A DNA stretch of 17,712 nt. Source: Rhodocyclaceae bacterium UBA2346 (lineage in GTDB: Bacteria > Pseudomonadota > Gammaproteobacteria > Burkholderiales > Rhodocyclaceae). Below the pieces are notes generated by a model that was not told where the DNA came from, did not search any database, and was given only the letters and a program-made list of their open reading frames with translations. The position numbers were made by a program, and so were the translations under genes. Position 1 is the stretch's first letter; every line of letters starts with the position of its first letter. The DNA lies in NCBI GenBank assembly GCA_002344625.1, contig DDUE01000046.1:1-17712 (forward strand), read 5' to 3'. Shown here in pieces: positions 3,605 through 17,712 of this stretch.

Positions 3605-3614
3605 GGTCAGCCCA

Positions 3615-4532
3615 GTGAAGTTCACCATCTTCCAAGAGAGCCGTATCGGCCGGCGCAAGGCAAATCAGGACCGCACCGCCTACAGTTATTCGCGCGATGC
3701 CCTGCTGATGATCGTCGCCGACGGCATGGGCGGGCATCTGCATGGCGAGATTGCCGCGCAGATCTCGGTGCAGTTCATCACCGAAGCCTTTCAGCGCGAG
3801 GCCACGCCAGCCCTGCCCGACCCGATTTTCTTCCTGTCGCGGGCACTCACCAACGCCCACAACGCGATCGTCGACTACGCTTTCGACAAGCACCTGCCCG
3901 AGGCCCCCCGCACCACCGTGGTGGCATGTATCGTCCAGGAAGGCTTCGCCTACTGGGCGCATGCCGGCGATTCGCGCCTGTACACGCTGCGACGCGGCCG
4001 GATCGCGGTGCGCACCCGCGACCATTCGCGCGTGCAGATGATGATGGACCAGGGCCTGCTCGACGAAGCGGGCGCCGCAAACCATCCCGGCCGCAACCGC
4101 ATCTACAGCTGCCTCGGCGGCAATCACCCCCCGCAGATCGAGTACTCGAAGCCGTTCCAGCTGCGCGACGGCGACATCGTGATGCTGTGCTCCGACGGTT
4201 TGTGGGGCCCCCTCAAGGACGACGACGTGCTGGCCGGCCTGGCCGGCGCCGACGTGATGCAGGCCGTCCCAAAGCTGCTCGACCACTCGGAAGCGCTTGC
4301 CGGCAAGCTGTGCGACAACCTTTCGATGGTTGCGATGTGCTGGCAGGACGATACCGGCGCGGTCGCGGGCGACTCGATCTCGACCCGCACCATGGCGCAG
4401 GACCGCTTCACCACCCGGCTCGACACGTTCGACCGCAACCGCAGCTCGGCCAACGCATTCGATCTCACCGAAGACGAAATCGAACGCGCGATCGCCGAGA
4501 TCAACTCAGCCATCCAGAAATTCAGCAAATAG
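3615..4532 (+). CDS. PP2C-family serine/threonine phosphatase
   Basis: Metal-dependent protein phosphatase of 305 aa, expected to reverse phosphorylation by the kinase encoded just upstream. PP2C motifs with their metal ligands are present in order: NQDR (D19), VADGMGGH (D36, G37), AHAGDSRLY (D119), LCSDGLWG (D194) and CDNLSMV (D234). No transmembrane segment or fused sensor is visible. Residues about 245-305 form an acidic, polar tail after the catalytic domain. The start is GTG at 3615, preceded by TGAGG about ten bases upstream, and the spacer after the kinase stop is only 10 bases, which indicates one transcript. The gene ends seven bases before rph. Confidence 0.93.
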
Positions 4533-4539
4533 GACCGCA

Positions 4540-5256
4540 ATGCGCCCCAGCAACCGCAAGCCCGACCAACTCCGCCCCATCCGGATCACCCGCAACTACA
4601 CCCGCCATGCCGAAGGCTCGGTGCTGATCGAGTTCGGCGACACCCGGGTGCTATGTACCGCCAGCGTCGAAGACAACGTTCCGCCTTTTCTGCGCGGCAG
4701 AGGGCAGGGCTGGCTCACCGCCGAGTACGGCATGTTGCCGCGCTCGACCCACACCCGCAGCGCCCGCGAGGCCGCCAAAGGCAAGCAGAGCGGCCGCACC
4801 CAGGAGATCCAGCGCCTGATCGGCCGCAGCCTGCGCGCGGCGGTGGATCTCAAAGCCCTGGGCGAACGTCAGGTCATCATCGACTGCGACGTGCTGCAGG
4901 CGGACGGCGGCACCCGCACCGCGTCGATCACCGGCGCATGCGTGGCCGTGCACGATGCGCTCGAACGCCTCGTCGCCACCGGCAAGCTGGCGAGCAATCC
5001 GATGCACACGCTGGTCGCCGCGGTCTCGGTCGGCATCGTCGCCGGCGAGGCGGTGCTCGACCTCGACTATGAAGAAGACGCGGCCTGCGACACCGACATG
5101 AACGTGGTCATGATGGCCGGCGGCGGTTTCATCGAAGTACAAGGCACCGCCGAAGGCCAGGCGTTCAGCCACGCCGAACTCGACGCCCTGCTGCGACTGG
5201 CCGAACGCGGTATCGCCGAGCTGGTCGAAGCGCAGAAAGCGACCCTCGCCGGCTGA
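4540..5256 (+). CDS. rph: Ribonuclease PH
   Basis: Phosphate-dependent 3'-5' exoribonuclease that trims the 3' ends of tRNA precursors and takes part in rRNA turnover; the family forms a hexameric ring. The protein has 238 aa, the length of intact E. coli RNase PH. Landmarks are [14 protein letters not shown] (57-70), the phosphate-binding stretch [15 protein letters not shown] (85-99), [19 protein letters not shown] (115-133) and the acidic site DTDMNVV with D180 and D186. The ATG at 4540 follows AGGACC and gives the conserved [10 protein letters not shown]-terminus; the longer open frame upstream overlaps the phosphatase gene and is not coding. It lies between the phosphatase gene and rdgB in a compact run. 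Confidence 0.97.
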
Positions 5257-5270
5257 AAGGAGTATCCGCC

Positions 5271-5867
5271 ATGCTCGACCGCCTCGTCCTCGCCAGCAAC
5301 AACGCCAAGAAGGCCGCGGAGCTCGCTGCGCTGCTTGCGCCGCTGGGCATCACGGTAGTGCCGCAATCCGATTTCGATGTGCCCGAGGCCGACGAACCCC
5401 ATCCGACCTTCGTCGAGAACGCACTGGCCAAGGCCCGCCATGCCGCGATGCTGACCGGTCTGCCGGCCATCGCCGACGACTCTGGCCTGTGCGTCACCGT
5501 CCTGGGCGGCGCCCCGGGCGTCATGTCCGCCCGCTATGCCGGCGAGCCCCGCTCGGATGCGCGCAACAATGCGCTGCTGCTCGAGCGCCTGGCCGGCGAG
5601 CACGACCGGCACGCGTATTTTTACTCGGTGGTGGTTCTGGTACGACATGCCGACGACCCGCGCCCGTTGATCGCCGACGGCGAGTGGCACGGCGAGATCC
5701 TCGAGACACCGCGCGGCGAAGGCGGATTCGGCTATGACCCGCTGTTCCACATTCCCGAACTCGAACAAACGGCGGCCGAACTCGACCCGCCGCTCAAGAA
5801 CACCCTCAGCCATCGCGGCGCGGCCATGCGCCACCTGCTCCAGCGCCTGCAGAGCGGCGAGGTCTGA
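5271..5867 (+). CDS. rdgB: XTP/dITP pyrophosphatase (Ham1/RdgB)
   Basis: House-cleaning enzyme that hydrolyses non-canonical purine nucleotides (dITP, XTP, ITP) to the monophosphate and pyrophosphate, keeping them out of DNA and RNA. Length is 198 aa (E. coli 197). Family motifs are SNNAKK (9-14), FVENALAKA (47-55), the catalytic DDSGL (D69, D70), GFGYDPLF (152-159) and SHR (180-182). A strong ribosome-binding site, AAAGGAG, lies eight bases before the ATG. It is 14 bases after rph and 11 before hemW, so it is almost certainly cotranscribed with them; the rph-rdgB-hemW order recurs in betaproteobacteria. Confidence 0.97.
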   Translation: MLDRLVLASNNAKKAAELAALLAPLGITVVPQSDFDVPEADEPHPTFVENALAKARHAAMLTGLPAIADDSGLCVTVLGGAPGVMSARYAGEPRSDARNNALLLERLAGEHDRHAYFYSVVVLVRHADDPRPLIADGEWHGEILETPRGEGGFGYDPLFHIPELEQTAAELDPPLKNTLSHRGAAMRHLLQRLQSGEV

Positions 5868-5878
5868 TTCATACCGCC

Positions 5879-7108
5879 ATGAAAGTCATTCCACTGGTCG
5901 CAAGAGCCCCCGCGGCGGGCACGCCGGATCCGGCACGCCCCGCCCTCGCGAGTTCGCCGCCGCTGTCGCTGTACGTGCATTACCCCTGGTGCGTCAAGAA
6001 ATGCCCGTATTGCGACTTCAATTCGCATGCGTTGCGCGGTGACGGCCACGCCCTCGACGGCGACACCGAGCGCGCCTACATCGACGCCCTGCTGGCCGAC
6101 ATCGAATCCGCCCTGCCGCAGGTGTGGGGCCGCCGGGTGCTTTCGGTGTTCATCGGAGGCGGCACCCCCAGCCTGATGTCGGCCGCCGCGCTCGACCGGC
6201 TGCTGACCGGCATCCGGACGCTGCTGATGCTCGACCCCCTGGCCGAGATCACGCTCGAGGCCAACCCCGGCACTTTCGAGGCCGCGCGCTTTCGCGACTA
6301 CCGCGCCGCCGGCGTCAATCGCCTGTCGATCGGCGTGCAGAGTTTCGACGACGACCAGCTCGCCCAGCTCGGCCGCATTCATGACGGCAACGCCGCGCGG
6401 CGTGCGATCGAGATCGCACTCGCACACTTCGAGCGGGTGAACATCGACTTGATGTACGCCCTGCCACGGCAAACCCTTGCTGCCGCGCTGCGCGACCTCG
6501 ACACCGCCCTCGCCTTCGGGCCGGGCCACCTGTCGTGCTACCAGCTCACGCTCGAGCCCAACACCCCGTTTCACCACGCCCCGCCGCCGCTACCCGACGG
6601 CGATCTCGCCGCCGACATGCAGGACGCCATCGAAGCACGGCTCGCCAGCGCCGGCTTCGAGCACTACGAGACGTCCGCCTTCGCCAAACCGGGCCAGCAA
6701 AGTCGCCACAACCTCAACTACTGGACCTTTGGTGACTACCTCGGCATCGGTGCCGGCGCGCACGGCAAGCTCTCCAGCCACACCGGCATCGTGCGCGAAA
6801 TGCGCCACAAGCACCCCGTCCGTTACCTCGAAGCCGCCGCGGGCCGCGACTTCGTCCAGGAACGGCGCGAAGTCGGCGTCGCCGACCTGCCCTTCGAATT
6901 CATGATGAACGCCCTGCGCCTCAACGGCGGGGTGCCGCTGACGCTGTTTCAGGCACGCACCGGCCTGCCTCTAGACACCATCGAACCGGCCCTGATCGCA
7001 GCACGCCAGGCCGGGCTGGTGAGCATCGCGGAAGAGCATGTCCGCCCTTCCGATACCGGGCGGCGCTTCCTCAACGACCTGCTCGGGCGCTTCCTGCCCG
7101 AGGACTGA
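5879..7108 (+). CDS. hemW: Radical SAM heme chaperone HemW
   Basis: Radical SAM protein of 409 aa, once annotated as oxygen-independent coproporphyrinogen III oxidase but now known as a heme chaperone that delivers heme to respiratory enzymes. The 4Fe-4S motif CX3CX2C is C38, C42, C45 (CVKKCPYCDF). GGGTPS (93-98) is part of the SAM site and HNLNYW (277-282) is the HemW-type heme motif. The motif is CVKKCPYC, the HemW form, so it is not called HemN. The first 28 residues are Pro/Ala-rich and poorly conserved, so the true start may be a few codons later, but no better site with a ribosome-binding sequence is seen. It is the last gene of the run and converges on sppA, with 10 bases between the stop codons. 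Confidence 0.94.
   Translation: MKVIPLVARAPAAGTPDPARPALASSPPLSLYVHYPWCVKKCPYCDFNSHALRGDGHALDGDTERAYIDALLADIESALPQVWGRRVLSVFIGGGTPSLMSAAALDRLLTGIRTLLMLDPLAEITLEANPGTFEAARFRDYRAAGVNRLSIGVQSFDDDQLAQLGRIHDGNAARRAIEIALAHFERVNIDLMYALPRQTLAAALRDLDTALAFGPGHLSCYQLTLEPNTPFHHAPPPLPDGDLAADMQDAIEARLASAGFEHYETSAFAKPGQQSRHNLNYWTFGDYLGIGAGAHGKLSSHTGIVREMRHKHPVRYLEAAAGRDFVQERREVGVADLPFEFMMNALRLNGGVPLTLFQARTGLPLDTIEPALIAARQAGLVSIAEEHVRPSDTGRRFLNDLLGRFLPED
7082..7102. terminator. GC-rich hairpin at the hemW/sppA convergence
   Basis: CTCGGGC and GCCCGAG form a perfect 7-bp stem with a 7-base loop inside the last codons of hemW, just before the sppA 3' end. It could slow polymerase from both directions, but no T-run follows on either strand, so this is only a possible terminator. 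Confidence 0.3.
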
Positions 7109-8949: not shown

Positions 8950-9738
8950 CTATTGCTCTCCTGGCGCCACGACATTCACGTCACGCGGACGGCGCTGAAA
9001 AATCAGGTCCCAGACGCCGTGTCCGAGCCGCAGGCCGCGGTTCTCGAACTTGGTCAGTGGACGGTAATCGGGGCGCGGCGCAAAGCCGTCGGCCGTGTTT
9101 GCGAGCAAGGGCTCGGCATCGAGCACGTCGAGCATCCAGTGGGCGTATTCTTCCCAGTCGGTCGCACAGTGGAGATAGGCGCCCGGCGCCAGCCGCGATG
9201 CGATCAGCGCGACGAAATCCGGCTGAATGATGCGGCGCTTGTGATGGCGCTTCTTGTGCCACGGATCGGGAAAGAACACGTGCACACCGTGCAGCGCCCT
9301 TTCCGAAACCATGTCGCGCAAGACCTCCACGGCGTCATGCTGCATGATCCTTAGGTTGTCCAGGCGCTCTTCGGCAACCAGTTTGCACAGGTTGCCGACA
9401 CCGGGGCCATGCACCTCGATCGCGAGAAAATCCCGATCGGGCAAGGCTGCCGCAATGCGCGCGGTGGTCTCGCCCATTCCAAAACCGATTTCGACGATCT
9501 TCGGCGCCGCGCGCCCGAATGCGGCGTCGAGATCAAGTGGGGCAGGACGGTAGGACAAGCCGATCAGCGGCATCATTTCGTCGAGACAACGCTGCTGCGC
9601 GACGGTCATGCGCCCCTGGCGCAGCACGAAACTGCGAATCGAGCGGCTGGAAAAGCGTTGTCCCGGATCACACCCGTCGTCATCGTGGCGGACGCCGCCC
9701 TCGCCGGCTTCAGCCGGAACATATCTGTTTTCGCTCAT
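8950..9738 (-). CDS. trmB: tRNA (guanine-N7-)-methyltransferase
   Basis: SAM-dependent enzyme that makes m7G46 in the variable loop of tRNAs. The protein has 262 aa, slightly longer than E. coli TrmB because of an acidic N-terminal segment of about 30 residues before [11 protein letters not shown]. Landmarks are the SAM loop [10 protein letters not shown] (83-92), E108 in AIEVH, D135 in QHDAVEV, the signature [15 protein letters not shown] (155-169) and TKFENRG (228-234). It is the first gene of a two-gene unit with sppA. It is divergent from the tRNA-Gly locus, whose promoter starts 75 bases upstream of the trmB start codon. The start at 9738 lacks a strong ribosome-binding site, so an internal start is possible. 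Confidence 0.95.
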
Positions 9739-9812
9739 GTGCTCGATTACATCATGATTTTGGCAACACGCGAACGATCCAGCGGCTGGAAACGCGATCG
9801 CACTCGTCGCAA

Positions 9813-9841
9813 TTGCATGTCTGTTCGCCGCTGTTTAGAAT
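9813..9841 (+). promoter_or_regulatory. Sigma-70 promoter of the interrupted tRNA-Gly gene
   Basis: TTGCAT (-35) and TAGAAT (-10, five of six consensus bases) are separated by exactly 17 bases and followed by a GC-rich discriminator, as in growth-rate-controlled stable RNA promoters. The predicted transcription start is near 9848, about 25 bases before the mature tRNA 5' end. Transcription from here would run through the exon, the group II intron, the inner tRNA and the maturase gene. Confidence 0.75.
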
Positions 9842-9873
9842 GCGTGGCTCGCGCGCTCGGCGCGACAGTTTTT

Positions 9874-9912
9874 GCGGGTGTAGTTCAATGGTAGAACGGC
9901 AGCTTCCCAAGC
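9874..9912 (+). tRNA. tRNA-Gly(CCC), 5' exon (nucleotides 1-39)
   Basis: This is the 5' half of a tRNA-Gly gene: acceptor strand GCGGGTG, D-arm GTTC/GAAC, anticodon stem strand GCAGC, loop TTCCCAA with anticodon CCC, and the first two bases of the 3' stem strand (GC). It stops where the group II intron begins. Joined to 12581-12615 it gives a perfect 74-nt cloverleaf ending in CCA. The last six bases CCAAGC (9907-9912) are IBS1, complementary to EBS1 in the intron. They include two of the three anticodon bases, so the target lies in sequence that the tRNA cannot easily change. Confidence 0.95.
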
Positions 9913-10725
9913 GTGCGACGCGAGTCGCATAGGTTAGCGCCTACTCGACGTTTTTCGAGAAAAAGCCCAAGTCGTTCAGTCCCTGAAAACGACGCACCTG
10001 CTCGCAGGGGGGATTTTGTTGGTAGCTAATAAGATCGAGGAAACTCGATTTGCCTATGCAGCGAAGGCTGCACAAGTAATCGATCAGCTCCCGCAAGGGA
10101 TGAATTGATCCTGGGGTTCAGCCCCCTGTAGCCTAGGAGCAGTGCGCCGCTGGTAACGGTGGGGTGCCGAGCGCTCCAACAATGTAGCCACCTTATGGGG
10201 TACGCCATATCCCGTGAGGGGTCTGGTGTGATTTCGGGAGTTGCACCCGGATGAGGCGCTAGGCTGGGTTGGATGGTTAACGTAAGTGAACCGCTTATAA
10301 ACGTCGTCAAGCTTGAAAGAGCCAAAGGCAACTTGCAGTATCGGGCTCTGGCCAAAATGGCATGTGATCGGTTGTCCGCTTGCTTGGTGCGGACACGCTG
10401 ACATGTGATCACCGGCGAAATTGCGGAACCTTCCCAACTCTTGTTACTTGTGCGGAACGCGGTAAACCCAATACGTCGTCCGGCCAGTCTGGCGGACAAG
10501 GTGGCCTGTGAGGGTCATTGATGGCGTAGTGGGCAGAGGATGATGGAAAAAGCGAATGCTTCGCTGTAATAGCGGAGATAGGGGATGAAACGATTGCCCC
10601 GACGCGAAAGCGTGCAGACTTCCATCTGGTGACCCGTCGCAAGACTGGTCTGTTAATCGCCGCCCTGCGGGAATGATGTACTATTCCCGCTAGGGGTAGT
10701 TGCGTCCTTCCTTTACGGGAACCGG
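9913..10725 (+). ncRNA. Group II intron 5' ribozyme part (domains I-III and start of IV)
   Basis: These 813 bases have no supported gene; the open frames in them are minus-strand shadows of structured RNA. They begin with GTGCGACGCGAGTCGC and contain many short hairpins, among them the EBS1 hairpin (10373-10395), a GAAA-capped ACGCGAAAGCGT (about 10600) and an 8-bp stem GCGGGAAT/ATTCCCGC (10667-10690) that extends with CCCT/AGGG. A candidate EBS2 is AAGCT at 10309-10313, matching AGCTT at 9901-9905 of the exon, but this is less certain than EBS1. I did not draw the domain boundaries. Confidence 0.8.
10373..10395 (+). other. EBS1 hairpin of the group II intron
   Basis: TGTCCGC (10373-10379) and GCGGACA (10389-10395) form a perfect 7-bp stem with the 9-base loop TTGCTTGGT. 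GCTTGG (10382-10387) in the loop is the exact complement of CCAAGC at the end of the 5' exon (9907-9912). A terminal loop in domain I pairing with the six bases before the splice site is the standard EBS1-IBS1 contact that sets both splicing and retrohoming specificity. Confidence 0.85.
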
Positions 10726-10799
10726 GCGGGTGTAGTTCAATGGTAGAACTTCTGCTTCCCAAGCAGATAGCGTGGGTTCGATTCCCATCACCCGCTCCA
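10726..10799 (+). tRNA. Complete tRNA-Gly(CCC) embedded in the group II intron
   Basis: A full 74-nt cloverleaf with encoded CCA: acceptor GCGGGTG/CACCCGC, D-arm GTTC/GAAC, anticodon stem TCTGC/GCAGA with loop TTCCCAA (anticodon CCC), variable loop TAGC, T-arm GTGGG/CCCAT with TTCGATT. It is identical to the interrupted host tRNA in nucleotides 1-24 and 46-74. The eight differences are at 25, 26, 28, 40, 42, 43, 44 and 45. Two anticodon-stem pairs differ (26:42 G-C to T-A, 28:40 A-T to T-A) and both stay paired, so the copy looks selected for function. IBS1 is unchanged because it lies in the loop, but the bases upstream of it and the first base of the 3' exon differ. No convincing own promoter is seen; it would be released from intron transcripts by normal tRNA end processing. 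Confidence 0.95.
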
Positions 10800-10800
10800 T

Positions 10801-10815
10801 TCAACCGGGGGTTGA
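10801..10815 (+). repeat. Small hairpin between the inner tRNA and the maturase start codon
   Basis: TCAACC-GGG-GGTTGA forms a perfect 6-bp stem starting one base after the tRNA CCA end and ending one base before the maturase ATG. It contains the only G-rich stretch that could act as ribosome-binding site for the maturase. AACCGGG also occurs directly before the tRNA (10720-10726) and after it (10803-10809), a 7-bp direct repeat flanking the embedded tRNA. Functional meaning is uncertain. Confidence 0.5.
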
Positions 10816-10816
10816 T

Positions 10817-12487
10817 ATGGACGCAAGTCTCAACGATTGCGATGTCGCCTCCACGACCTGGCAAGCTTGGCACCACATCCCGTGGGTCGATGCGCACCGG
10901 ATCGTCGCGAGGTTACAGACGCGAATTGCGAAAGCAGCAACAGCGGGGGAGTGGCGGAAGGTTCGCGCCCTGCAGAAGCTCCTGACCAAATCCACCAGCG
11001 CGAAAGCGTTGGCCGTGAGGCGGGTAACGGAGAATCAAGGCCGGAAAACTCCAGGTGTCGATAAGCAAACCTGGGACACACCGGACAAGAAGTGGCAGGC
11101 GGTTGTCGGTCTCGGCAACAAGAGATACAAGCCCTTGCCATTACGTCGCATCTACATCCCGAAAGCCAACGGTGAAAAGCGCCCACTGGGCATTCCAACC
11201 ATGCGTGATCGGGCCATGCAAGCGCTGCACTTATTGGCGCTGGATCCCGTCGCCGAAGTGACCGGCGATGCCCATTCCTACGGTTTCAGACGTGAGCGCT
11301 CGACGGCGGACGCCATCGAACAGGTGCGAAACGCACTTGGTCGCAAGGCCTCGCCGAAATGGGTGCTGGAAGGGGACATCAAAGGCTGCTTCGACAACAT
11401 CAGTCACGACTGGCTGGTCGCCAATGTCTGCATGGACAAAGGCATCCTGCGCAAGTGGCTGAAGGCGGGGTTTATCGAAACGGGAAGGCTTTTTCCCACG
11501 CATACCGGCACGCCACAGGGAGGCATCATTTCCCCGGTGTTGGCGAACATCGCGCTGGACGGCCTGCAACGCGAGCTGACCACACTGTTTTCGACGGTGA
11601 GGGAGGCGCGCGGGGCCAAGGTCAATCTGGTGCGCTACGCGGACGACTTTGTGATTACCGGCAGCTCGAAAGAGTTGCTGGAAAGCAGGATCAAACCTCT
11701 GGTGGAGCGGTTCCTGGCCGCCAGGGGCCTTGGCCTCTCGGAGAAGAAGACCAAAATCACGCAAGTGACGGAGGGCTTCGACTTCCTGGGGTGGAATGTG
11801 AGGTATTTCAATCGCGTGCTGGTCACCCAGCCGTCGAAGAAGAATATCAAGGCGTTCCTCGACAAGGTGCGTACGCTGCTGCGTGAAAGAAAGGCTGCCG
11901 CGCAGACCGAAGTGGTGGACACGCTCGCCCCCGTCATCCGGGGCTGGGCCAACTACCATCGAAGTCAGATGGTATCCCGGACGTTTGCACGATGCGATCA
12001 TCAAATCTGGCAAATGCTGTGGCGTTGGGCGTGCCGCCGTCACCCGAACAAGGGAAAGCGGTGGATCAAACAGCGTTACTTCAAGTCCCTGCAGGGGCGC
12101 GATTGGCGATTTGCGGACAAGGACAAGCTGCTGCCCAGCTTGAGTGAGCACCGGAAACGGCGTCACATCAAGATTATGGGCGAGGCGAATCCCTACGACC
12201 CGAAGTATGACGAGTACTTCTCCAGAAGGCTTGGACAGAAAATGGAGATCATGCTAGAGGGTCGCCGCAAGCTCCGCTGGCTGTGGTGGTGGCAGGAAGG
12301 ACTCTGCCCGATCTGCGACCAGAAAATCACCCGTAAGACGGGGTGGCATCTACACCACATCGTCAAGCGGTCTGAACGGGGCTCGGACAAGCCGACCAAC
12401 CTGGTCTTGCTACATCCGAACTGCCACATGCAGCACCATGTTTTAGAAGGAAAGTACGGCCCTGCTGGCGTCTCGATGTACAAATGA
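10817..12487 (+). CDS. ltrA: Group II intron reverse transcriptase/maturase with HNH endonuclease domain
   Basis: Multifunctional intron-encoded protein of 556 aa that helps the intron fold and splice, nicks target DNA and copies the intron by target-primed reverse transcription. Reverse transcriptase blocks are YIPKANGEKRPLGIPTM (about 113-129), GDIKGCFDNI with catalytic D187, GTPQGGIISP (231-240), YADD (274-277, catalytic D276 and D277) and GFDFLGWNVR (320-329). The maturase (X) segment follows (about 345-470). The C-terminal HNH domain has CPIC (497-500), HLHH (511-514), N528 and CH (536-537). The frame extends upstream to a GTG at 10772, but that lies inside the embedded tRNA; the ATG at 10817 is the sensible start. 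The gene ends 18 bases before domain V. All active-site residues are intact. Confidence 0.94.
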   Translation: MDASLNDCDVASTTWQAWHHIPWVDAHRIVARLQTRIAKAATAGEWRKVRALQKLLTKSTSAKALAVRRVTENQGRKTPGVDKQTWDTPDKKWQAVVGLGNKRYKPLPLRRIYIPKANGEKRPLGIPTMRDRAMQALHLLALDPVAEVTGDAHSYGFRRERSTADAIEQVRNALGRKASPKWVLEGDIKGCFDNISHDWLVANVCMDKGILRKWLKAGFIETGRLFPTHTGTPQGGIISPVLANIALDGLQRELTTLFSTVREARGAKVNLVRYADDFVITGSSKELLESRIKPLVERFLAARGLGLSEKKTKITQVTEGFDFLGWNVRYFNRVLVTQPSKKNIKAFLDKVRTLLRERKAAAQTEVVDTLAPVIRGWANYHRSQMVSRTFARCDHQIWQMLWRWACRRHPNKGKRWIKQRYFKSLQGRDWRFADKDKLLPSLSEHRKRRHIKIMGEANPYDPKYDEYFSRRLGQKMEIMLEGRRKLRWLWWWQEGLCPICDQKITRKTGWHLHHIVKRSERGSDKPTNLVLLHPNCHMQHHVLEGKYGPAGVSMYK

Positions 12488-12505
12488 GGCGTTTGTGGGT
12501 TGCTT

Positions 12506-12580
12506 GAGCCGTATGCAGGGAAACTTGCACGTACGGTTCTTAGGGGAGGAGATTATCGTGAGGTAATCTCCTTACCCTCC
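12506..12580 (+). ncRNA. Group II intron domains V and VI
   Basis: Domain V is 12506-12539: a 34-nt hairpin opening GAGCCGTA and closing TACGGTTC, with the catalytic AGC triad, a two-base CG bulge and a GAAA tetraloop. Domain VI follows (about 12541-12578), pairing AGGAGATTA with TAATCTCCT and AGGG with CCCT. The unpaired A at 12574 is the expected branch-point adenosine, seven positions from the 3' splice site after 12580. The intron ends in CTCC rather than the common AY ending. Confidence 0.92.
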
Positions 12581-12615
12581 TGCATACGTGGGTTCGATTC
12601 CCATCACCCGCTCCA
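12581..12615 (+). tRNA. tRNA-Gly(CCC), 3' exon (nucleotides 40-74)
   Basis: It supplies the rest of the 3' anticodon stem strand (TGC), variable loop ATAC, T-arm GTGGG/CCCAT, acceptor CACCCGC, discriminator T and encoded CCA. With 9874-9912 the anticodon stem becomes GCAGC/GCTGC and every arm pairs. This 3' part is also the attachment site of the integrative element that starts immediately downstream. Confidence 0.95.
12587..12615 (+). other. Predicted attL of the right-hand integrative element (tRNA-Gly 3' end)
   Basis: A tyrosine integrase gene pointing inward begins 239 bases after the tRNA CCA end, the usual arrangement for elements that integrate into tRNA 3' ends; ICEclc-type elements use tRNA-Gly. 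The core must lie in the T-arm and acceptor part. The same 29 bases occur in the intron-borne tRNA (10771-10799), so a second potential target is present 1.8 kb upstream. The attR copy is outside the window, so the exact core length cannot be given. Confidence 0.7.
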
Positions 12616-12624
12616 CTGCATCAA

Positions 12625-12682
12625 TCCACGGAAATCCGTGGAGGTCCATGAAGCGCTGTAAGTCGTTATCGCCAAACGACTT
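12625..12682. repeat. Two hairpin-forming sites after the tRNA, inside the element end
   Basis: TCCACGGA-AA-TCCGTGGA (12625-12642) and AAGTCGTT-7 nt-AACGACTT (12660-12682) are perfect inverted repeats with 8-bp arms. The second is followed by two more T residues and could be a weak terminator for the tRNA transcript. Both could also be integrase or excisionase sites of the att region. Confidence 0.45.
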
Positions 12683-12736
12683 TTCATCGAAGCAGCGTTC
12701 CGGGGCCGTCCACTGAAATCCACCTGAATCCGGGAC

Positions 12737-12760
12737 TTTTGGGCCCATTTTTGGGCCCAT
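12737..12760. repeat. Two exact 12-bp tandem repeats with palindromic cores upstream of the integrase
   Basis: TTTTGGGCCCAT is repeated twice without a gap, giving two TGGGCCCA palindromes 12 bp apart. They lie about 95-115 bases before the integrase start, between the attachment site and the gene. Such spaced copies suit arm-type integrase sites or a regulator controlling int; this role is inferred. Confidence 0.6.
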
Positions 12761-12853
12761 TTTCACGGGTACGGCGGCTTCCGGATTGTTGCTAGAGGCG
12801 CGAGGCTGATGTGACCAGCATGCAGTTCCTGACGAATGTTCAGGAGCTAGAGC

Positions 12854-14704
12854 ATGGTGCTATCAGACATGGCTGTCCGGCGCGCGAAAGCCACCGGCAA
12901 GGCCTACGACCTCTACGACACGTTGGGCTTGTACCTGGCCGTCACCGCCAACGGTGGCAAGAGCTGGCATTTCCGCTACTACTGGCTGAACAAGCGCAAG
13001 CGGATGTCGTTCGGCACCTATCCGGAGGTGTCGCTACTCGAAGCCCGTGCGCTTCGCGACGAAGCACGGGCCTTGGTCGCCAAGGGCATCAATCCCCGTG
13101 TTCACCGCAAGCAGAAGCGTTCGGTTGCCAAGCTCGCCGGTGAGAACACCTTCGAAGCTGTGTACAGGAAGTGGTTCGCCCATCGCGAACTCAGTCTCAA
13201 GAAGGGCCGGCAGTGCACCGCCTCGGTACTCCCACGCATCTTCGACAAGGACGTTCTTCCGTTGTTGGGCAAGCGCACGATCTACGAGATCAAGCGCCCT
13301 GATTTGCTGGAAGTCATCGCCAGGATCGAGCGACGCAAGGCACTGTCCGTCGCCGAGAAGGTGCGGACCTGGTTCAACCAACTGTTCCGCTATGCCCTGG
13401 TGGCCGTGCCGGGTCTGGAACAGAACCCGGCCTCCGATCTCGATGTGGTCGCGGTGCCGCTGCCGCCCGTGAACCACAACCCGTTCCTGCGCATGGCCGA
13501 CCTGCCGAAGCTGTTGCAGCGGGTACGCAAGTATCGCGGCAGGTTGCAGACGCAGCTTGGGTTGCGGCTGCTGTTCCTGACCGGCGTGCGCACCGGCGAG
13601 TTGCGGCTCGCGACGCCGGACCAGTTTCACCTGGACCAAGGACTGTGGATCATCCCGCCCGAGGTCGTGAAGCAGTTGCAGATGGACATGCGCAGGAAGC
13701 GTCAGCAAGCGAAGGACATCCCGCCCTACATCGTGCCGTTGTCTGTGCAGGCCATGGAGGTCGTCCGCTACATGCTGGAGCACTTCAAGCCGGCGCAACG
13801 CTATCTGTTCCGACACGACTTCGATTTGAAGAAGCGCATGAGCGAGAACACGCTCAACACCGCACTCAAGCGCATGGGCTATCGCGATCTGCTGACGGGG
13901 CACGGCATCCGCGCCACGATGTCCACCGCGCTCAACGAGTTTGGCTATCCCAAAGCCTGGGTGGATGCGCAGCTCTCCCATGTCGATCCCAACAAGGTCA
14001 GCGCCACCTACAACCACGCCGAGTACGTGGAGCAACGCCGGCGCATGATGCAGGACTGGGCTGACCGGCTCGACCTCTTCGAGCAGAACATGGTCGAGGT
14101 GGCCAGCATGCCGCTGACCATTCACTTGGAAGGCGGACCCGCAATCGCTAACGAGCAGGCAACCAACGGCCCGCCAACAAGGACAGCCACGACGTCTCCG
14201 ATCCTGCTGGTGACGAAGCCTGGCGATGCGATGCCGCTGGTCTCCGCCGCCACGCATCGACTGTCTGCCGTTGCGTTGCCTCAGCCTGCGGTGCCGACGC
14301 CACTCTCTGATGTCCAGCGCGAGCGGATGGAACTGATCGAAGTCTTCGAGTCACCGCACAACCTGCTGGTCGCCGCGTACGCAAAGATGGCCGGAAAATC
14401 CCGTCGGTGGATCAGCTACGAGATCAAGGCCGGCAACCTGCTGGCGCTGAACGTCGGCAACCGCGGTCAGCGCGTACCCGACTGGCATCTTGACCCGAAC
14501 AAGCACGCCTTGATCCAGGCCGTGATGAAGTTGAACCGCGACGCCGACCCTTGGCGGATCTACCACGCGCTGTTGCAGCTGCACCCGATGCTGGGTCGTC
14601 GCTCAGCCATCGAAGCCGTCACCGCGAACAATCTCGACAAGGCCATCATGGTCGTATCGACCGCCGTGAAGGAAAGCGAATGGACGCCTCTGCAGGTGGC
14701 GTAG
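12854..14704 (+). CDS. IntB13-like tyrosine integrase with long C-terminal extension
   Basis: Recombinase expected to insert and excise the element at tRNA-Gly. The protein has 616 aa, about 200 longer than usual P4-type integrases. Residues 1-90 are the DUF4102-like arm-binding domain (MAVRRAKATGKAYDLYD, FGTYPEVSLLEAR), 100-200 the core-binding domain and 210-410 the catalytic domain with R246 (GVRTGEL), H350-G-I-R353, H376 and Y386 (ATYNHAEYVEQRR). After a Pro/Thr-rich linker (about 420-485), residues 487-605 form a separate helical domain (WISYEIKAGNLLALNVG, DPWRIYHALLQLHPMLG) resembling the toxin-binding domain of MbcA/ParS/Xre antitoxins. Long integrases of this kind are typical of ICEclc-like elements. 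AGGAG eight bases before the ATG fixes the start. Confidence 0.92.
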   Translation: MVLSDMAVRRAKATGKAYDLYDTLGLYLAVTANGGKSWHFRYYWLNKRKRMSFGTYPEVSLLEARALRDEARALVAKGINPRVHRKQKRSVAKLAGENTFEAVYRKWFAHRELSLKKGRQCTASVLPRIFDKDVLPLLGKRTIYEIKRPDLLEVIARIERRKALSVAEKVRTWFNQLFRYALVAVPGLEQNPASDLDVVAVPLPPVNHNPFLRMADLPKLLQRVRKYRGRLQTQLGLRLLFLTGVRTGELRLATPDQFHLDQGLWIIPPEVVKQLQMDMRRKRQQAKDIPPYIVPLSVQAMEVVRYMLEHFKPAQRYLFRHDFDLKKRMSENTLNTALKRMGYRDLLTGHGIRATMSTALNEFGYPKAWVDAQLSHVDPNKVSATYNHAEYVEQRRRMMQDWADRLDLFEQNMVEVASMPLTIHLEGGPAIANEQATNGPPTRTATTSPILLVTKPGDAMPLVSAATHRLSAVALPQPAVPTPLSDVQRERMELIEVFESPHNLLVAAYAKMAGKSRRWISYEIKAGNLLALNVGNRGQRVPDWHLDPNKHALIQAVMKLNRDADPWRIYHALLQLHPMLGRRSAIEAVTANNLDKAIMVVSTAVKESEWTPLQVA

Positions 14705-14731
14705 CGGCCAGGGCAACAGAGTCACCCAGGT

Positions 14732-15358
14732 CTACGCCCCGATCGCCCGCGCGTGTTCGACCAGACGGTCGACGGAGGCAGAAGAAGCGGAGTCGGGACG
14801 AACTAAGTAGGTCGTGATCTCCACGGGCCGATGTGCCAAGGGGCGACCGACAACACCGAGCGGCCGGTATGACTCCACTGTGGCCGCGGGCGCCAAGCAT
14901 ACGCCATAGCCTGCGGCTACCAACGTCATCATCAGGTCGAACGACCGCACTTCGATCGTGCTTGAGGGTGATGCGTCAGTCGCCGCCAGAAGCCGCCCGA
15001 TCTGCGCGCGATAGCCCGCGCCAGCTTGTGCATCCAGGGTGATCCAGACACTGGGCATCATGTGTTCAAGCGACACTGATTCGTGGGCAAGCAATGGATG
15101 CCGACGCGCAACGCCCATCATCAGCGCATCGCGCCAGACGGGGGTAGCGCTGAGGCCACGTGAGACGGGAGCGGATTGGCAAAGGCCCACATCGAAGGTG
15201 CCATCCTCCAGTCCTTGGATCAGTTCCGCTACGGAAGCCTCCCGGAGTCGAACGCGCACGCCAGGTTCGTGCTGGCGATGCAGCGTCAGCAGCGCTGTCA
15301 GCCGGGGATAGACCAGGCTGTCCGACAAAGCGATGTGCAGCGTATCCAGGGAAGTCAT
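14732..15358 (-). CDS. LysR-type substrate-binding domain protein without DNA-binding domain
   Basis: The protein has 208 aa and corresponds only to the effector-binding part of LysR regulators: it begins LDTLHIALSDSLVYPRLTALL, contains FDVGLCQSAPVSRGL, and later TLVAAGYGVCLAPAATVESY. The N-terminal winged helix (about 90 residues) is absent. Upstream of the ATG (AGGTG ahead of it) there is only a short region divergent from the Xre gene and no remnant of an HTH frame, so the short form looks stable. It converges on the integrase gene with 27 bases between stops. It may sense a ligand and act by pairing with a full-length regulator, or be a relic; the sequence does not decide. Confidence 0.8.
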   Translation of the reverse strand: MTSLDTLHIALSDSLVYPRLTALLTLHRQHEPGVRVRLREASVAELIQGLEDGTFDVGLCQSAPVSRGLSATPVWRDALMMGVARRHPLLAHESVSLEHMMPSVWITLDAQAGAGYRAQIGRLLAATDASPSSTIEVRSFDLMMTLVAAGYGVCLAPAATVESYRPLGVVGRPLAHRPVEITTYLVRPDSASSASVDRLVEHARAIGA

Positions 15359-15413
15359 CGCAACACCTGCTCAGCACCTGACGCTAATAAATCCAAGAGC
15401 CGGGTTCGTGTGA

Positions 15414-15425
15414 GTTAAGTTTAAC
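15414..15425. promoter_or_regulatory. Palindrome in the divergent region between the LysR-like and Xre genes
   Basis: GTTAA-GT-TTAAC is a perfect inverted repeat with 5-bp arms, followed by a related GTTTAA at 15429-15434. It sits 38 bases before the Xre start codon and 56 bases from the LysR-like start. An autoregulatory operator for the Xre protein is the natural guess. Confidence 0.45.
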
Positions 15426-15462
15426 GTGGTTTAAGTCGGCGTGATATTCGACGCTTTCATGG

Positions 15463-15768
15463 ATGCAGAAGCGATCGATACAGCGCGGACGACCCGCAGG
15501 AACAACGACCTATGAAGCCTTGCCTGCGCGCGCGTTCGGCGTGGCGGTGCGTGAGGCAAGGACCGTGCAAGGTGTGGCCCAGGAGACCTTGGCGGGCCTG
15601 GCAGGTATCGAGCGTTCGCACATGGGCAAGATCGAGCGGGGCGAGCACATGCCGAACCTGGCGTTGATCCTTCGGATCGCCAACGCGCTGGGGTGCAGCG
15701 CCGCTTCACTGATCGCGACTACCGAATCCCGGTTGGCCGACCAATCGGAATCGGCCGGCCCGAACTGA
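15463..15768 (+). CDS. Xre-family transcriptional regulator
   Basis: Small DNA-binding protein of 101 aa with one helix-turn-helix domain (about residues 25-85): AVREARTVQGVAQETLAGLAG, recognition segment IERSHMGKIERGEHMPNLALI, and the closing helix ILRIANALGCSAASLI. The N-terminal QRGRPAGTTTYEA tail is basic. It is typical of regulators near the integrase end of conjugative elements, where they control excision or transfer genes. No clear ribosome-binding site precedes the ATG. The gene is divergent from the LysR-like gene and converges with the traI remnant. Confidence 0.88.
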   Translation: MQKRSIQRGRPAGTTTYEALPARAFGVAVREARTVQGVAQETLAGLAGIERSHMGKIERGEHMPNLALILRIANALGCSAASLIATTESRLADQSESAGPN

Positions 15769-15801
15769 CGCGCCCCATTTGTCGCCTCCGGCCCATCGAT
15801 C

Positions 15802-16409
15802 TCAAGGGGCCATCACGGATTTGCCGTCGATCAGCTTCAGATACGGATGTTGGCGATGATCTGTGACAGCACATGGGTCGGCTCCTCCAGTAGATAGCCG
15901 TGCAGCCGACGCGACTTGCGCGGCCCGGTCACTTCGCAGGTCCAGATGTTTAATCCGCTGTCCTGCTTGCGATGCAGGTGCAGCCGCTCGAACTGCTTCT
16001 GCACCCATTGCCAATCGGCCAGCTTCTCCTGCTTCGCCAGTGAAGCGACCTGCGGATGTTCTTGAACGTAGCGCTGGAAAACGCCGGGACTGACCAGGTA
16101 CGCGGTGTCAGCCACCGTATGCACCAGCGCCTTCGCATCGTTGAGGATGAGCCGATGGGACTGGAGGCCCTGTCTCAGCCACTCCACGAAGTTTTCACCA
16201 GAGGGCATTGCGCCGCGGGCGTTCTGAAGCGTCGGCGCCGATTCAGGCGCCAATGTCGCAGATGTCGTTGCAGGTGTGGACTCCTCGGTGAGTTCTTCTT
16301 CCGGCGCCAGACTCTGGGGATCATGAGCGTTCAACCGCAAGCGGGCAGCCACGGGTAATGCGGTGCTGGCCCAGTCCGGATTGAAACGGGAAGGCAGGCT
16401 GTACCGACC
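15802..16409 (-). pseudogene. traI: 3' remnant of a MOBH-type relaxase gene (traI), frameshifted
   Basis: The minus-strand frame reads RYSLPSRFNPDWASTALP at its start and later NFVEWLRQGLQSHRLILN, then HTVADTAYLVSPGVFQRYV, the C-terminal TraI_2 domain of relaxases found in integrative conjugative elements. About 190 codons remain, whereas intact proteins exceed 600 aa. Upstream the frame ends at a TAG (16410-16412), and the missing 5' part is replaced by the toxin-antitoxin genes. Near the 3' end the frame reads SQIIANIRI and stops at 15837, while the next frame continues with PYLKLIDGKSVMAP to a stop at 15802, so one base has been lost near 15845. It is broken at both ends and cannot encode a working relaxase. 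Confidence 0.8.
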
Positions 16410-16458
16410 CTACGATGAGTCCTTCTGACCGACCGGAGGCGTGCCATGCTGATCCAGA

Positions 16459-16487
16459 TTGACAGCGTAAGGAAAATTCCTTACCAT
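16459..16487 (+). promoter_or_regulatory. Promoter with embedded operator of the prlF-yhaV operon
   Basis: TTGACA (16459-16464, perfect -35) and TACCAT (16482-16487, -10) are exactly 17 bases apart. Between and overlapping them lies the palindrome GTAAGGAA-AA-TTCCTTAC (16467-16484) with perfect 8-bp arms. A repressor bound there would block RNA polymerase, as expected for autoregulated toxin-antitoxin operons. Transcription would start near 16494, about 20 bases before the antitoxin ATG. Confidence 0.8.
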
Positions 16488-16514
16488 GCGGGCGTTGTCA
16501 TCCCGAGAACTGCC

Positions 16515-16829
16515 ATGCCCGAAATCCATGAAGTCGCGACGCTGACCTCCAAGGGTCAGATCACCCTGCCCAAGCCCATCCGGCAGGCCTTGGGCGTGGA
16601 CACCGGCGGAAAAGTGGCGTTCGACTTGCGCGGGGGCGAAGTCATCGTGACCCGAGCCGACGAACACGAAGACCCGGCGATTGGCGCCTTCCTCGGCTTG
16701 CTGGAGGCGGACATCCGCGCGGGGCGCAACCTCCAGCCGCTGCCGGAGGATCTTGCCCGAGCGATGCTGGCGAACATTGGGCACGCGGTGAACCTCGATG
16801 AAGACATCGAAGGCGAAGTGGAGCTCTGA
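16515..16829 (+). CDS. prlF: Type II antitoxin, PrlF family (AbrB-like)
   Basis: Antitoxin of 104 aa that neutralises the downstream YhaV ribonuclease and probably represses the operon. Residues 1-48 form a swapped-hairpin AbrB DNA-binding domain (VATLTSKGQITLPKPIRQALG, then VAFDLRGGEVIVTRA). The acidic C-terminal half (DPAIGAFLGLLEADI to the end) is the part expected to bind the toxin. The frame opens upstream at an ATG at 16446 with GGAGG before it, but that would place the promoter and operator inside the coding region, so the ATG at 16515 is preferred; it gives the usual family length. Its stop overlaps the toxin start (TGATG). Confidence 0.88.
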   Translation: MPEIHEVATLTSKGQITLPKPIRQALGVDTGGKVAFDLRGGEVIVTRADEHEDPAIGAFLGLLEADIRAGRNLQPLPEDLARAMLANIGHAVNLDEDIEGEVEL

Positions 16830-17296
16830 TGCAGCGGCATGGCTGGACGCTGCTGTTCCACGATGGCGTGGTCGAGCAGTTGCGCAAGCTGCACGTGGCG
16901 GCGCAGCGTGCCGAGCAGAACGACCCAGCGGGATTCGAGGGCAACGCCAACGTCAAGCTGTTCCGGGCGCTGAGCCAGTTGATCCTGGAAGTCGTGCCGA
17001 GCGACCCCGCGCGAGACGAGTTCCGGCAGGGCAATACCCTGGGTGCGGCGTACCGCCACTGGCGGCGCGCGAAGATCGGACGACGCTTCCGTCTGTTCTT
17101 CCGCTACGACTCCAAGGTGAAGGCCATCGTGTACGCCTGGGTCAACGACGAGCAGACCCTGCGATCGGCGGGCAGCAAGTCCGATCCGTATGCGGTGTTC
17201 GAGAAGATGCTGGGGCGAGGCAATCCGCCCGACGATTGGGCGGCCCTGGTCGCGGCAAGCCAAGCGGACTGGGCCGCATCCAAGAAACCAAAATAG
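16829..17296 (+). CDS. yhaV: Type II toxin YhaV (ribonuclease)
   Basis: RelE-superfamily RNase toxin that cleaves mRNA and slows translation when not bound by PrlF. The protein has 155 aa (E. coli YhaV 154) with the family landmarks: GWTLLFHD (5-12), LFRALSQLI (44-52), the core RRFRLFFRYDSK (85-96), WVNDEQTLR (104-112), where E. coli has WMNDENTLR, and YAVFEKMLGRGNPPDDW (121-137). Its ATG overlaps the antitoxin stop by one base, so the two are translationally coupled with the antitoxin first. The pair replaces the 5' part of traI and probably stabilises the element. Confidence 0.92.
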   Translation: MQRHGWTLLFHDGVVEQLRKLHVAAQRAEQNDPAGFEGNANVKLFRALSQLILEVVPSDPARDEFRQGNTLGAAYRHWRRAKIGRRFRLFFRYDSKVKAIVYAWVNDEQTLRSAGSKSDPYAVFEKMLGRGNPPDDWAALVAASQADWAASKKPK

Positions 17297-17318
17297 GCAG
17301 ACACATGAGGTAGTCACG

Positions 17319-17690
17319 ATGAAAGCCTCTCTAAAAATGACGAGGGCGGAGGGCGCCGGCCGAACTCTCGGCCGCGCCTACCGAGCAGCCATGCGTCGAG
17401 AGGCCCATGTCGTGCGGTGGCTGGTTGGCAAGGGCCTGCCGATTTCGGGTGCCAAGGCGATTCTCTGGATCATCAAGCTCGCGGTGATCGGCGTGTTGCT
17501 TTACGTAGCGTTCTGGCTGGCGCTCCTACTGTTGCTTGTCGCCTCCGCGGCTTGGCTGGCTCGTGGCGTGGATCAAACGGAACCAGAAGAGTGGGCAGTC
17601 GGCGATCAGGCGGATCACAAGAAGAGCGTCTTCTATGACCCGATCAACTACAACGACGACCCAGATCCGCGATTCGACGACGATCGCTAG
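17319..17690 (+). CDS. DUF3742 family membrane protein
   Basis: Protein of 123 aa recognisable as the DUF3742 family of integrative conjugative elements; its function is unknown. A basic N-terminal half (GRTLGRAYRAAMRREAHVVR) is followed by a hydrophobic stretch (about 47-82, long enough for one or two membrane passes, KLAVIGVLLYVAFWLALLLL) and an acidic tail ending DPDPRFDDDR. The ATG at 17319 has GAGG about ten bases upstream; the longer frame from 17190 overlaps yhaV and is not coding. It lies 22 bases after yhaV. In related elements it accompanies conjugation genes, so the element here may retain transfer functions beyond the window. Confidence 0.85.
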   Translation: MKASLKMTRAEGAGRTLGRAYRAAMRREAHVVRWLVGKGLPISGAKAILWIIKLAVIGVLLYVAFWLALLLLLVASAAWLARGVDQTEPEEWAVGDQADHKKSVFYDPINYNDDPDPRFDDDR

Positions 17691-17712
17691 GGTCTGTTCA
17701 CAAATGACAAAA
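17691..17712. other. Right window edge, possible insertion-sequence terminus
   Basis: The 22 bases after the DUF3742 stop begin GGTCTGTTCACAAATGAC next to a CTAG. This resembles the terminal inverted repeat of some IS5-like insertion sequences, but too little is visible to decide. Confidence 0.2.

What the first reader, a model, noticed from the sequence alone, without database searches (positions are those of the whole stretch)
9874..12615. Group II intron splits a tRNA gene and carries a complete replacement tRNA of the same identity
Seen: exons 9874-9912 and 12581-12615 join to a perfect tRNA-Gly(CCC); the 2668-nt insert has a GUGYG start, domains V/VI and an intact RT-HNH gene; inside it lies an uninterrupted tRNA-Gly(CCC) (10726-10799). 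Known: bacterial group II introns usually sit in mobile DNA, intergenic sites or after terminators; I recall no bacterial one that interrupts a tRNA and brings its own spare copy. Inference: the spare removes the cost of target disruption, so the intron can spread even if splicing of the tRNA is poor: a natural homing-plus-rescue element.
Basis: partly seen in the sequence, partly recalled or inferred. Interest (0 to 1): 0.96.

Follow-up and report, generated by a model that had tools for sequence, protein, structure and literature searches.

The report
Intron splits tRNA, carries replacement tRNA
A family of bacterial group II introns interrupts the glycine tRNA gene that reads GGG, at one and the same spot, and carries a complete tRNA of the same kind inside itself; this inner copy likely replaces the gene that the intron breaks, so that the element would spread at little cost to its host.

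Summary
A 2,668-nt group II intron (9913-12580) splits tRNA-Gly(CCC) after position 40 and carries an intact tRNA-Gly(CCC) (10726-10799) 17 nt before its maturase gene. A congener (G001) has the uninterrupted gene, identical 74/74 to the joined exons. It is not a one-off: 29 genomes hold the element or its remains, 26 with an intact inner tRNA. All 21 with both junctions seen on one contig use the same bond and tRNA identity. Their maturases form one clade (21 against 44 introns without a tRNA). Of 26 genomes checked, 24 have exactly one uninterrupted tRNA-Gly(CCC): the inner copy in 22, a host-type copy in G662, the empty site in G001. In two decayed elements (G026, G635) domains V/VI and the 3' exon are gone, yet the inner tRNA is intact. 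Inner and outer copies differ most often at base pair 29:41, which straddles the insertion bond (19 of 21; in two introns this is the only difference), so the inner copy would escape the intron itself; 4 of 25 inner copies break this pattern. I read it as a natural home-and-rescue retroelement. Expression, splicing and homing are untested. My searches found no earlier report.

The parts
9874..9912 (+). 5' exon: first 39 nt of the host (outer) tRNA-Gly(CCC)
   Evidence: joined exons fold as tRNA-Gly(CCC); identical to the uninterrupted tRNA of G001
9913..12580 (+). group II intron, 2,668 nt
   Evidence: Rfam D1-D4 and D5/D6 matches; ends set by the empty site in G001
10110..10258 (+). ribozyme part matching Rfam group-II-D1D4-7
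   Evidence: E 4.7e-20
10309..10313 (+). EBS2 candidate AAGCT, complementary to exon -12..-8 AGCTT
   Evidence: inferred
10382..10387 (+). EBS1 candidate GCTTGG in a hairpin loop, complementary to IBS1 CCAAGC (exon -6..-1)
   Evidence: present in 25 of 25 introns long enough to show it, and in L245; inferred
10437..10437 (+). EBS3 candidate (A, to pair with T at exon +1)
   Evidence: A in 23 of 25 aligned introns, G in L026, T in L029, the only one whose exon +1 is A; found by screening columns, inferred
10700..10707 (+). 5' arm of a stem that encloses the inner tRNA
   Evidence: MFE fold
10726..10799 (+). inner, complete tRNA-Gly(CCC)
   Evidence: ARAGORN, Rfam 73.3 bits; only uninterrupted tRNA-Gly(CCC) found in this partial genome
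10819..10826 (+). 3' arm of that stem; overlaps the maturase start codon
   Evidence: MFE fold
10817..12487 (+). intron-encoded reverse transcriptase-maturase with HNH domain, 556 aa
   Evidence: Pfam, TIGR04416, 613.6 bits to PDB 6me0_C
12504..12580 (+). domains V and VI
   Evidence: Rfam RF00029, 70.6 bits
12581..12615 (+). 3' exon: last 35 nt of the outer tRNA-Gly(CCC)
8950..9738 (-). trmB, host gene beside the tRNA, also beside the empty site in G001
   Evidence: TIGR00091; tblastn
12854..14704 (+). tyrosine integrase of an island beside the outer tRNA
   Evidence: Pfam PF13356, PF00589, PF22022

Best explanation
This is a clade of group II introns that occupy one bond of the tRNA-Gly(CCC) gene and carry a complete tRNA-Gly(CCC) of their own, which is predicted to replace the gene they interrupt and so would let them home at little cost to the host. 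Shown by sequence: one fixed site (between tRNA positions 40 and 41), an empty site in a congener, a fixed slot for the inner tRNA just before the maturase start codon, a single clade of maturases, one uninterrupted tRNA-Gly(CCC) per genome, and two cases where the inner tRNA outlives the rest of the intron. Inferred: the maturase-lariat complex recognises the anticodon arm by EBS1-IBS1, EBS2-IBS2 and EBS3-IBS3 pairing and inserts there. The inner tRNA is read through from the host tRNA promoter and cut out by RNase P and the tRNA 3' processing enzymes, from the precursor or from the excised intron. A swapped base pair 29:41 in most inner copies keeps the tRNA fold but spoils -12 and +1 of the target, so that the element would not attack, or mis-splice at, its own rescue copy.
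For: Window anatomy. Empty site in G001, 74/74 identical, with a 1,568-nt upstream alignment at 79%. One clade: 20 of 52 maturases, 100/99; 21 of 65, SH-aLRT 99. Sole uninterrupted tRNA-Gly(CCC) is the inner copy in 22 of 26 genomes checked. Fossils G026 and G635: inner tRNA intact; maturase, domains V/VI and 3' exon not found anywhere in those assemblies. 17 distinct inner sequences: 97.5% of cloverleaf cells paired, 47 double-change cells against 15.6 in shuffles, 0 of 500 as high. Inner copies lack T at +1 in 21 of 25, against 6 of 144 uninterrupted genes in the listed family rows. -12 and +1 differ between outer and inner in 19 of 21; in L028 and L030 nothing else differs.
Against: No RNA data: neither expression of the inner tRNA nor splicing nor homing was seen. 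Four inner copies (L204, L207, L208, L209) keep T at +1, and the split one of G662 also had it, so self-immunity is not universal; the inner copy of L208 even pairs better with its EBS2 than its outer site does. In G662 a host-type tRNA-Gly(CCC), not the inner one, is the intact copy. No promoter-like site was found before either tRNA. The Fisher tests ignore relatedness. The count of pairs with changes on both sides in the inner tRNA is reached by 41 of 500 shuffles. E. coli can live without this tRNA (PMC9981150) and tRNA-Gly(UCC) also reads GGG (PMC7461829), so the need for rescue may be modest. The window's genome is only 52.8% complete.
Confidence: 0.81

Rival explanations
1. The inner tRNA is a structural or regulatory part of the intron: a folded plug in domain IV that hides the maturase start codon, so that cutting it out by RNase P would switch on maturase translation and switch off splicing. 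Its decoding function would not matter.
For: The tRNA sits in a fixed slot 14-24 nt before the maturase ATG, and in the window a stem that covers the start codon encloses it (similar arms by eye in most relatives).
Against: A plug need not be tRNA-Gly(CCC), yet the identity always equals that of the broken target (26 of 26 intact copies). The tRNA is kept in two elements whose maturase and domains V/VI are gone. L245 shows no clear stem and L205 a weak one. This role could coexist with rescue.
Confidence: 0.1
2. Splicing of the outer tRNA is efficient and the inner copy is only a spare that adds dose; the host would not depend on it.
For: In the 21 elements with both junctions, domain V, the ends and the outer exons are intact and the joined exons fold, as expected if splicing is under selection. 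The mismatched stem of some outer tRNAs is native: 19 of 40 genomes of the genus of L023 have it uninterrupted.
Against: In G026 and G635 the outer cannot be spliced and the inner is the only copy found. A dose role does not explain the swapped pair at the insertion bond.
Confidence: 0.06
3. The inner tRNA is an accidental passenger, picked up once and drifting.
For: Single origin on the tree, as one capture would give.
Against: Maturases of the clade differ by up to about 45% from the window's (L245), while every intact inner tRNA still folds and keeps the anticodon; inner sequences take several natural forms of tRNA-Gly(CCC) but no other tRNA, with compensatory changes.
Confidence: 0.02

Closest known systems
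Group II introns with a maturase like that of PDB 6me0 (recalled: T.el4h of Thermosynechococcus, class IIB)
   Same: Ribozyme domains and maturase (613.6 bits to 6me0_C); IIB-like exon recognition is my inference
   Different: Sits in a tRNA gene and carries a tRNA of the target's identity; the nearest introns without a tRNA that I looked at (L033, L039, L008) have no tRNA at their ends
Organellar tRNA group II introns such as trnK-matK (PMC4424553, passages)
   Same: A group II intron with a maturase gene inside a tRNA gene
   Different: Bacterial; MatK is described as a degenerated RT; no replacement tRNA is mentioned in the passages I read
Group I introns in bacterial tRNA genes (PMC4033280, passages)
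   Same: Self-splicing intron in the anticodon arm of a bacterial tRNA gene
   Different: Other ribozyme class; mostly at position 37/38; no replacement tRNA mentioned. That review also has one sentence on group I and II introns at 37/38, citing chloroplast work, while its table lists only group I for bacteria
HomeR home-and-rescue gene drives (PMC7968924, abstract and outline)
   Same: Works like it: homing into a gene while carrying a rescue copy of that gene
   Different: Engineered, CRISPR-based, in flies; here a natural bacterial ribozyme and reverse transcriptase
Genomic islands that integrate at the 3' end of tRNA genes (general knowledge)
   Same: Target a tRNA and leave a working tRNA; such an integrase lies beside this tRNA
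   Different: They restore the 3' end at the junction; here a whole second tRNA is carried inside and the old one stays split

Membership tests
Group II intron | GUGYG 5' end | tested here: met
   GTGCGAC at 9913; L030 has GTACGAC
Group II intron | Catalytic domain V with domain VI | tested here: met
   RF00029, 70.6 bits against a cut-off of 40; also over the cut-off in 14 of the 14 relatives with visible 3' ends among the 18 loci
Group II intron | Domain I-IV scaffold | tested here: met
   RF02012, 98.9 bits against 34
Group II intron | 3' end AY | tested here: not met
   Ends CC in the window; AC in 8 of 21 members, CC in 13 (by eye). A textbook consensus, recalled, not a strict requirement; I keep the filing because the catalytic domains are met
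Group II intron | Encoded RT-maturase | tested here: met
   Pfam and TIGR04416
Group II intron | Splicing and retrohoming activity | not testable with these tools
   needs RNA and mobility assays
Home-and-rescue element (functional class) | Interrupts a conserved target gene at a fixed site | tested here: met
   21 of 21 with both junctions; empty site
Home-and-rescue element (functional class) | Carries an intact copy of the target | tested here: met
   26 of 29 genomes; 2 not assessable, 1 split by an inserted stretch
Home-and-rescue element (functional class) | Rescue copy recoded against the element | tested here: inconclusive
   +1 changed in 21 of 25; 4 keep it
Home-and-rescue element (functional class) | Rescue copy is expressed and functional | not testable with these tools
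   indirect only: sole copy, fossils, pairing kept
Group I tRNA intron | Group I ribozyme core | tested here: not met
   no group I family among the Rfam matches of the window up to E 0.1

The most novel reading that the evidence does not exclude
A natural, self-immune home-and-rescue retroelement: a group II intron that homes to tRNA-Gly(CCC), breaks it, supplies the cell's only tRNA-Gly(CCC), and keeps that copy safe from itself by swapping the one base pair (29:41) that straddles its target bond, while cutting out the tRNA turns the same transcript from splicing to maturase synthesis. By making itself the sole source of the tRNA it would also become hard to lose.
Probability: 0.58. Interest if true: 0.97.

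Novelty: new variant of a known kind. Interest (0 to 1): 0.94.

Why it matters
[quoted passage not shown] This clade shows another way into a conserved gene: bring a replacement. It is a natural counterpart of engineered home-and-rescue drives, at a target where one swapped base pair of an anticodon stem may decide between target and rescue copy. It makes two questions testable: how a selfish intron becomes needed by its host, and how tRNA processing and intron splicing compete on one transcript. It also warns annotators that the only tRNA-Gly(CCC) of some genomes lies inside an intron, while the split one is missed by a tRNA finder.

Tried and rejected
Decay of the outer tRNA: the joined outer tRNA of L023, L025, L026 and L027 has a C28-U42 mismatch, which looked like decay. 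19 of 40 genomes of the genus of L023 have the same stem uninterrupted (counted by eye), so I dropped this. The same check for the genus of L025 was not run (one search failed).

G580 as a fossil: I first took it for a dead element. One search, made while checking this report, found its domains V/VI and 3' exon on another contig, beyond an island integrase that abuts the inner tRNA. It is now counted as an element split by an island, and the fossils are two, not three. The same call showed that the inner tRNA of G662 is split by about 21 kb (the other half and a whole maturase lie at 639,923-641,740 of the same contig), and that G528 has the last 18 nt of an inner tRNA next to foreign DNA.

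A universal rule that the inner copy is recoded: 4 of 25 break it. A universal start-codon stem: not clear in L245, weak in L205. Promoter scan 9600-12900: no sigma-70-like site, which says little. Two genomes of the genus of L023 (G704, G709) and G037 have a tRNA identical to the window's inner copy without an intron nearby; the flanks of G704 and G709 match each other but not G702, G693, L023 or L030; donors or old rescues, open. Junction hits in the phylum sample: of 6, own and G1011 are real; G906, G827, G805 and G830 show no tRNA and no maturase nearby and were dropped. Maturase relatives on plasmids (1,438 records, 2 of them at 60-80% identity, the rest lower) and phages (9 records, all under 60%) were listed, not examined for tRNAs.

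Two viral loci (L132, L133) begin too near the match to show the tRNA slot. L201 was dropped as the same contig as L022. L202 and L203 were not assessable (contigs end after 107 and 335 nt of intron). L213 (split inner) and L216 (mutated 5' exon) are not in the n = 25 recoding count. The family baseline uses the 150 rows printed of a longer list, counted by eye, less 6 inner copies. One search finds only tRNAs within one mismatch of its pattern. In one search only 40 of the 42 and 56 first-look candidates of G557 and G528 were scored.
Full report
OBSERVATION. The window holds a tRNA-Gly(CCC) gene cut after its 39th nucleotide. Exons 9874-9912 and 12581-12615 join to a 74-nt tRNA that ARAGORN folds with anticodon CCC. 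The 2,668-nt insert begins GTGCGAC and matches group II D1-D4 (10110-10258) and domains V/VI (12504-12580) in Rfam. It encodes a 556-residue reverse transcriptase-maturase with an HNH domain (10817-12487). Inside it, at 10726-10799, lies a complete tRNA-Gly(CCC). The two copies differ at 8 of 74 positions, all in or beside the anticodon stem.

EMPTY SITE. G001, of the same genus, has an uninterrupted tRNA-Gly(CCC) identical 74/74 to the joined exons, in a 1,568-nt upstream alignment at 79% identity, with trmB next door as in the window. The insert is therefore an insertion, placed to the base.

RECURRENCE. Two relatives in other genera (G032, G033) showed the same layout among 61 genomes. Ten carry a tRNA-Gly(CCC) just before the maturase (L022-L030, L043), and all ten interrupt tRNA-Gly(CCC) at the same bond. 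In the other 70, and in the 80 viral loci (two not assessable), ARAGORN found no tRNA in that slot. A search by the 5' junction alone found 17 of 297 genomes in the family, in 12 of 68 genera, 2 of 399 in the order, and 6 of 398 in the phylum; of the last 6, two are real (own and G1011) and four look like chance. In 21 both junctions lie on one contig and the exons join to a tRNA-Gly(CCC). Five genera share an identical inner tRNA (window, G032, G530, G538, G026), while the outer tRNAs of the first four are of three kinds (G032 and G530 share one), so the inner copy travels with the intron.

ONE CLADE. The maturases of tRNA-bearing introns form one side of a branch: 20 of 52 with support 100/99, and 21 of 65 with SH-aLRT 99 in a quick tree when L245 (G1011, same class, another family; 54.5% identical) is added. 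The tool warns that the place of the long L245 row is unsure. Within the clade the inner tRNA takes several natural forms of tRNA-Gly(CCC), but never another tRNA.

THE INNER COPY IS THE ONE THE GENOME HAS. With a pattern for uninterrupted tRNA-Gly(CCC), allowing one mismatch, 24 of 26 genomes have exactly one. In 22 it is the intron's inner copy; in G662 a host-type copy beside the split inner one; in G001 the empty site. The two without a match (G528, G557) have contigs that end inside the intron. Two elements are dead. In G026 the outer anticodon is mutated to CGC, part of D1 is deleted, and maturase, domains V/VI and 3' exon are gone. In G635 no maturase, domain V/VI or 3' exon follows the inner tRNA. 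A whole-genome search found none of these elsewhere in either assembly (96% and 100% complete). In both the inner tRNA is intact and the only one found. The 5' exon is retained in each, which fits read-through from the host tRNA promoter (inference). Over 17 distinct inner sequences 97.5% of cloverleaf cells are paired, with 47 double-change cells against a shuffled mean of 15.6 (0 of 500 as high); the number of pairs with changes on both sides is less telling, 41 of 500.

ISLANDS TREAT THE INNER COPY AS A tRNA. In G580 an island integrase follows the inner tRNA directly, and domains V/VI with the 3' exon lie at the end of another contig. In G528 the last 18 nt of an inner tRNA, followed by the maturase gene, stand next to foreign DNA. 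In G662 about 21 kb separate the two parts of the inner tRNA, and a whole host-type tRNA-Gly(CCC) lies about 50 nt inside the left end. That these are integrations at the inner tRNA is my inference.

RECODING. EBS1 GCTTGG (10382-10387) complements IBS1 CCAAGC, and EBS2 AAGCT (10309-10313) complements exon -12..-8. A candidate EBS3 (10437), picked by screening columns, is A in 23 of 25 aligned introns, G in L026 and T only in L029, the one member whose exon +1 is A rather than T. tRNA pair 29:41 lies at -12 and +1. Inner copies lack T at +1 in 21 of 25 introns, whereas of 144 uninterrupted tRNA-Gly(CCC) rows listed in the family only 6 lack it (by eye). Fisher p is about 1e-17 for all and 7e-14 for unique sequences (15 of 18), uncorrected for relatedness. 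Between outer and inner copies of the same intron, -12 and +1 differ in 19 of 21, the most of any position counted; in L028 and L030 they are the only differences. Three inner copies also change IBS1 (L004, L205, L211), as does L245. Four inner copies (L204, L207, L208, L209) keep T at +1, so this is a strong tendency, not a rule.

MECHANISM. The best reading is a homing intron that carries its own rescue. Shown: site, cargo, clade, sole copy, two fossils, recoding in most. Inferred: retrohoming into tRNA-Gly(CCC), transcription from the host promoter, excision of the inner tRNA by RNase P, immunity by recoding. In the window a stem that covers the maturase start codon encloses the inner tRNA (10700-10707 with 10819-10826); similar arms are seen by eye in most relatives but not clearly in L245. 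It suggests that taking out the tRNA frees maturase translation and ends splicing of that molecule; this is speculation.

KNOWN CONTEXT. In the passages I read, one review places a group II intron in an organellar tRNA-Lys gene (PMC4424553). Another lists group I introns for bacterial tRNA genes, with one sentence on group I and II introns at 37/38 (PMC4033280). A survey of prokaryotic group II introns mentions disrupted tRNA genes for archaeal introns (PMC8919778), and the phage survey has tRNA only in a reference (PMC12350094). Searches for an earlier report found none (listings), in an open-access library that lacks most subscription journals. In E. [quoted passage not shown] A glyU deletion strain grew more slowly and plasmid copies rescued it, though the same paper calls the effect weak (PMC9981150, passages). 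The rescue is thus most likely of fitness, not of life.

VERDICT. Observation confirmed; interpretation supported and extended: a group II intron clade with a home-and-rescue design.

Noticed in passing
window 12854-17712: Beside the tRNA lies an island: tyrosine integrase 12854-14704, LysR substrate domain 14732-15358 (-), TraI_2 C-terminal domain 15837-16352 (-), YhaV-type toxin 16829-17296 and DUF3742 17190-17690.
   Followed up: partly
L231 (G662:C23) 3471-4319 and L263 2397-4241: About 21 kb separate the two parts of an inner tRNA, and a whole host-type tRNA-Gly(CCC) lies about 50 nt inside the left end; an inserted element may bring its own replacement tRNA too.
   Followed up: partly
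L227 (G709), L228 (G704), L007 (G037): Intron-free genomes carry a tRNA-Gly(CCC) identical to the window's inner copy; donors, or rescue copies that outlived the intron.
   Followed up: partly
L030 3632 and 4501-6166; L043 4501-6226: L030 starts GTACG instead of GTGCG, and the maturases of L030 and L043 align in two segments, so their frames are probably broken.
   Followed up: no
window 12579-12580 and relatives: The intron ends CC in 13 of 21 members and AC in 8, away from the textbook AY (by eye).
   Followed up: no
window 103-1272 (-): Weak tblastn match (24.7% over 409 aa) to the island integrase: perhaps a second tyrosine recombinase at the left end of the window.
   Followed up: no
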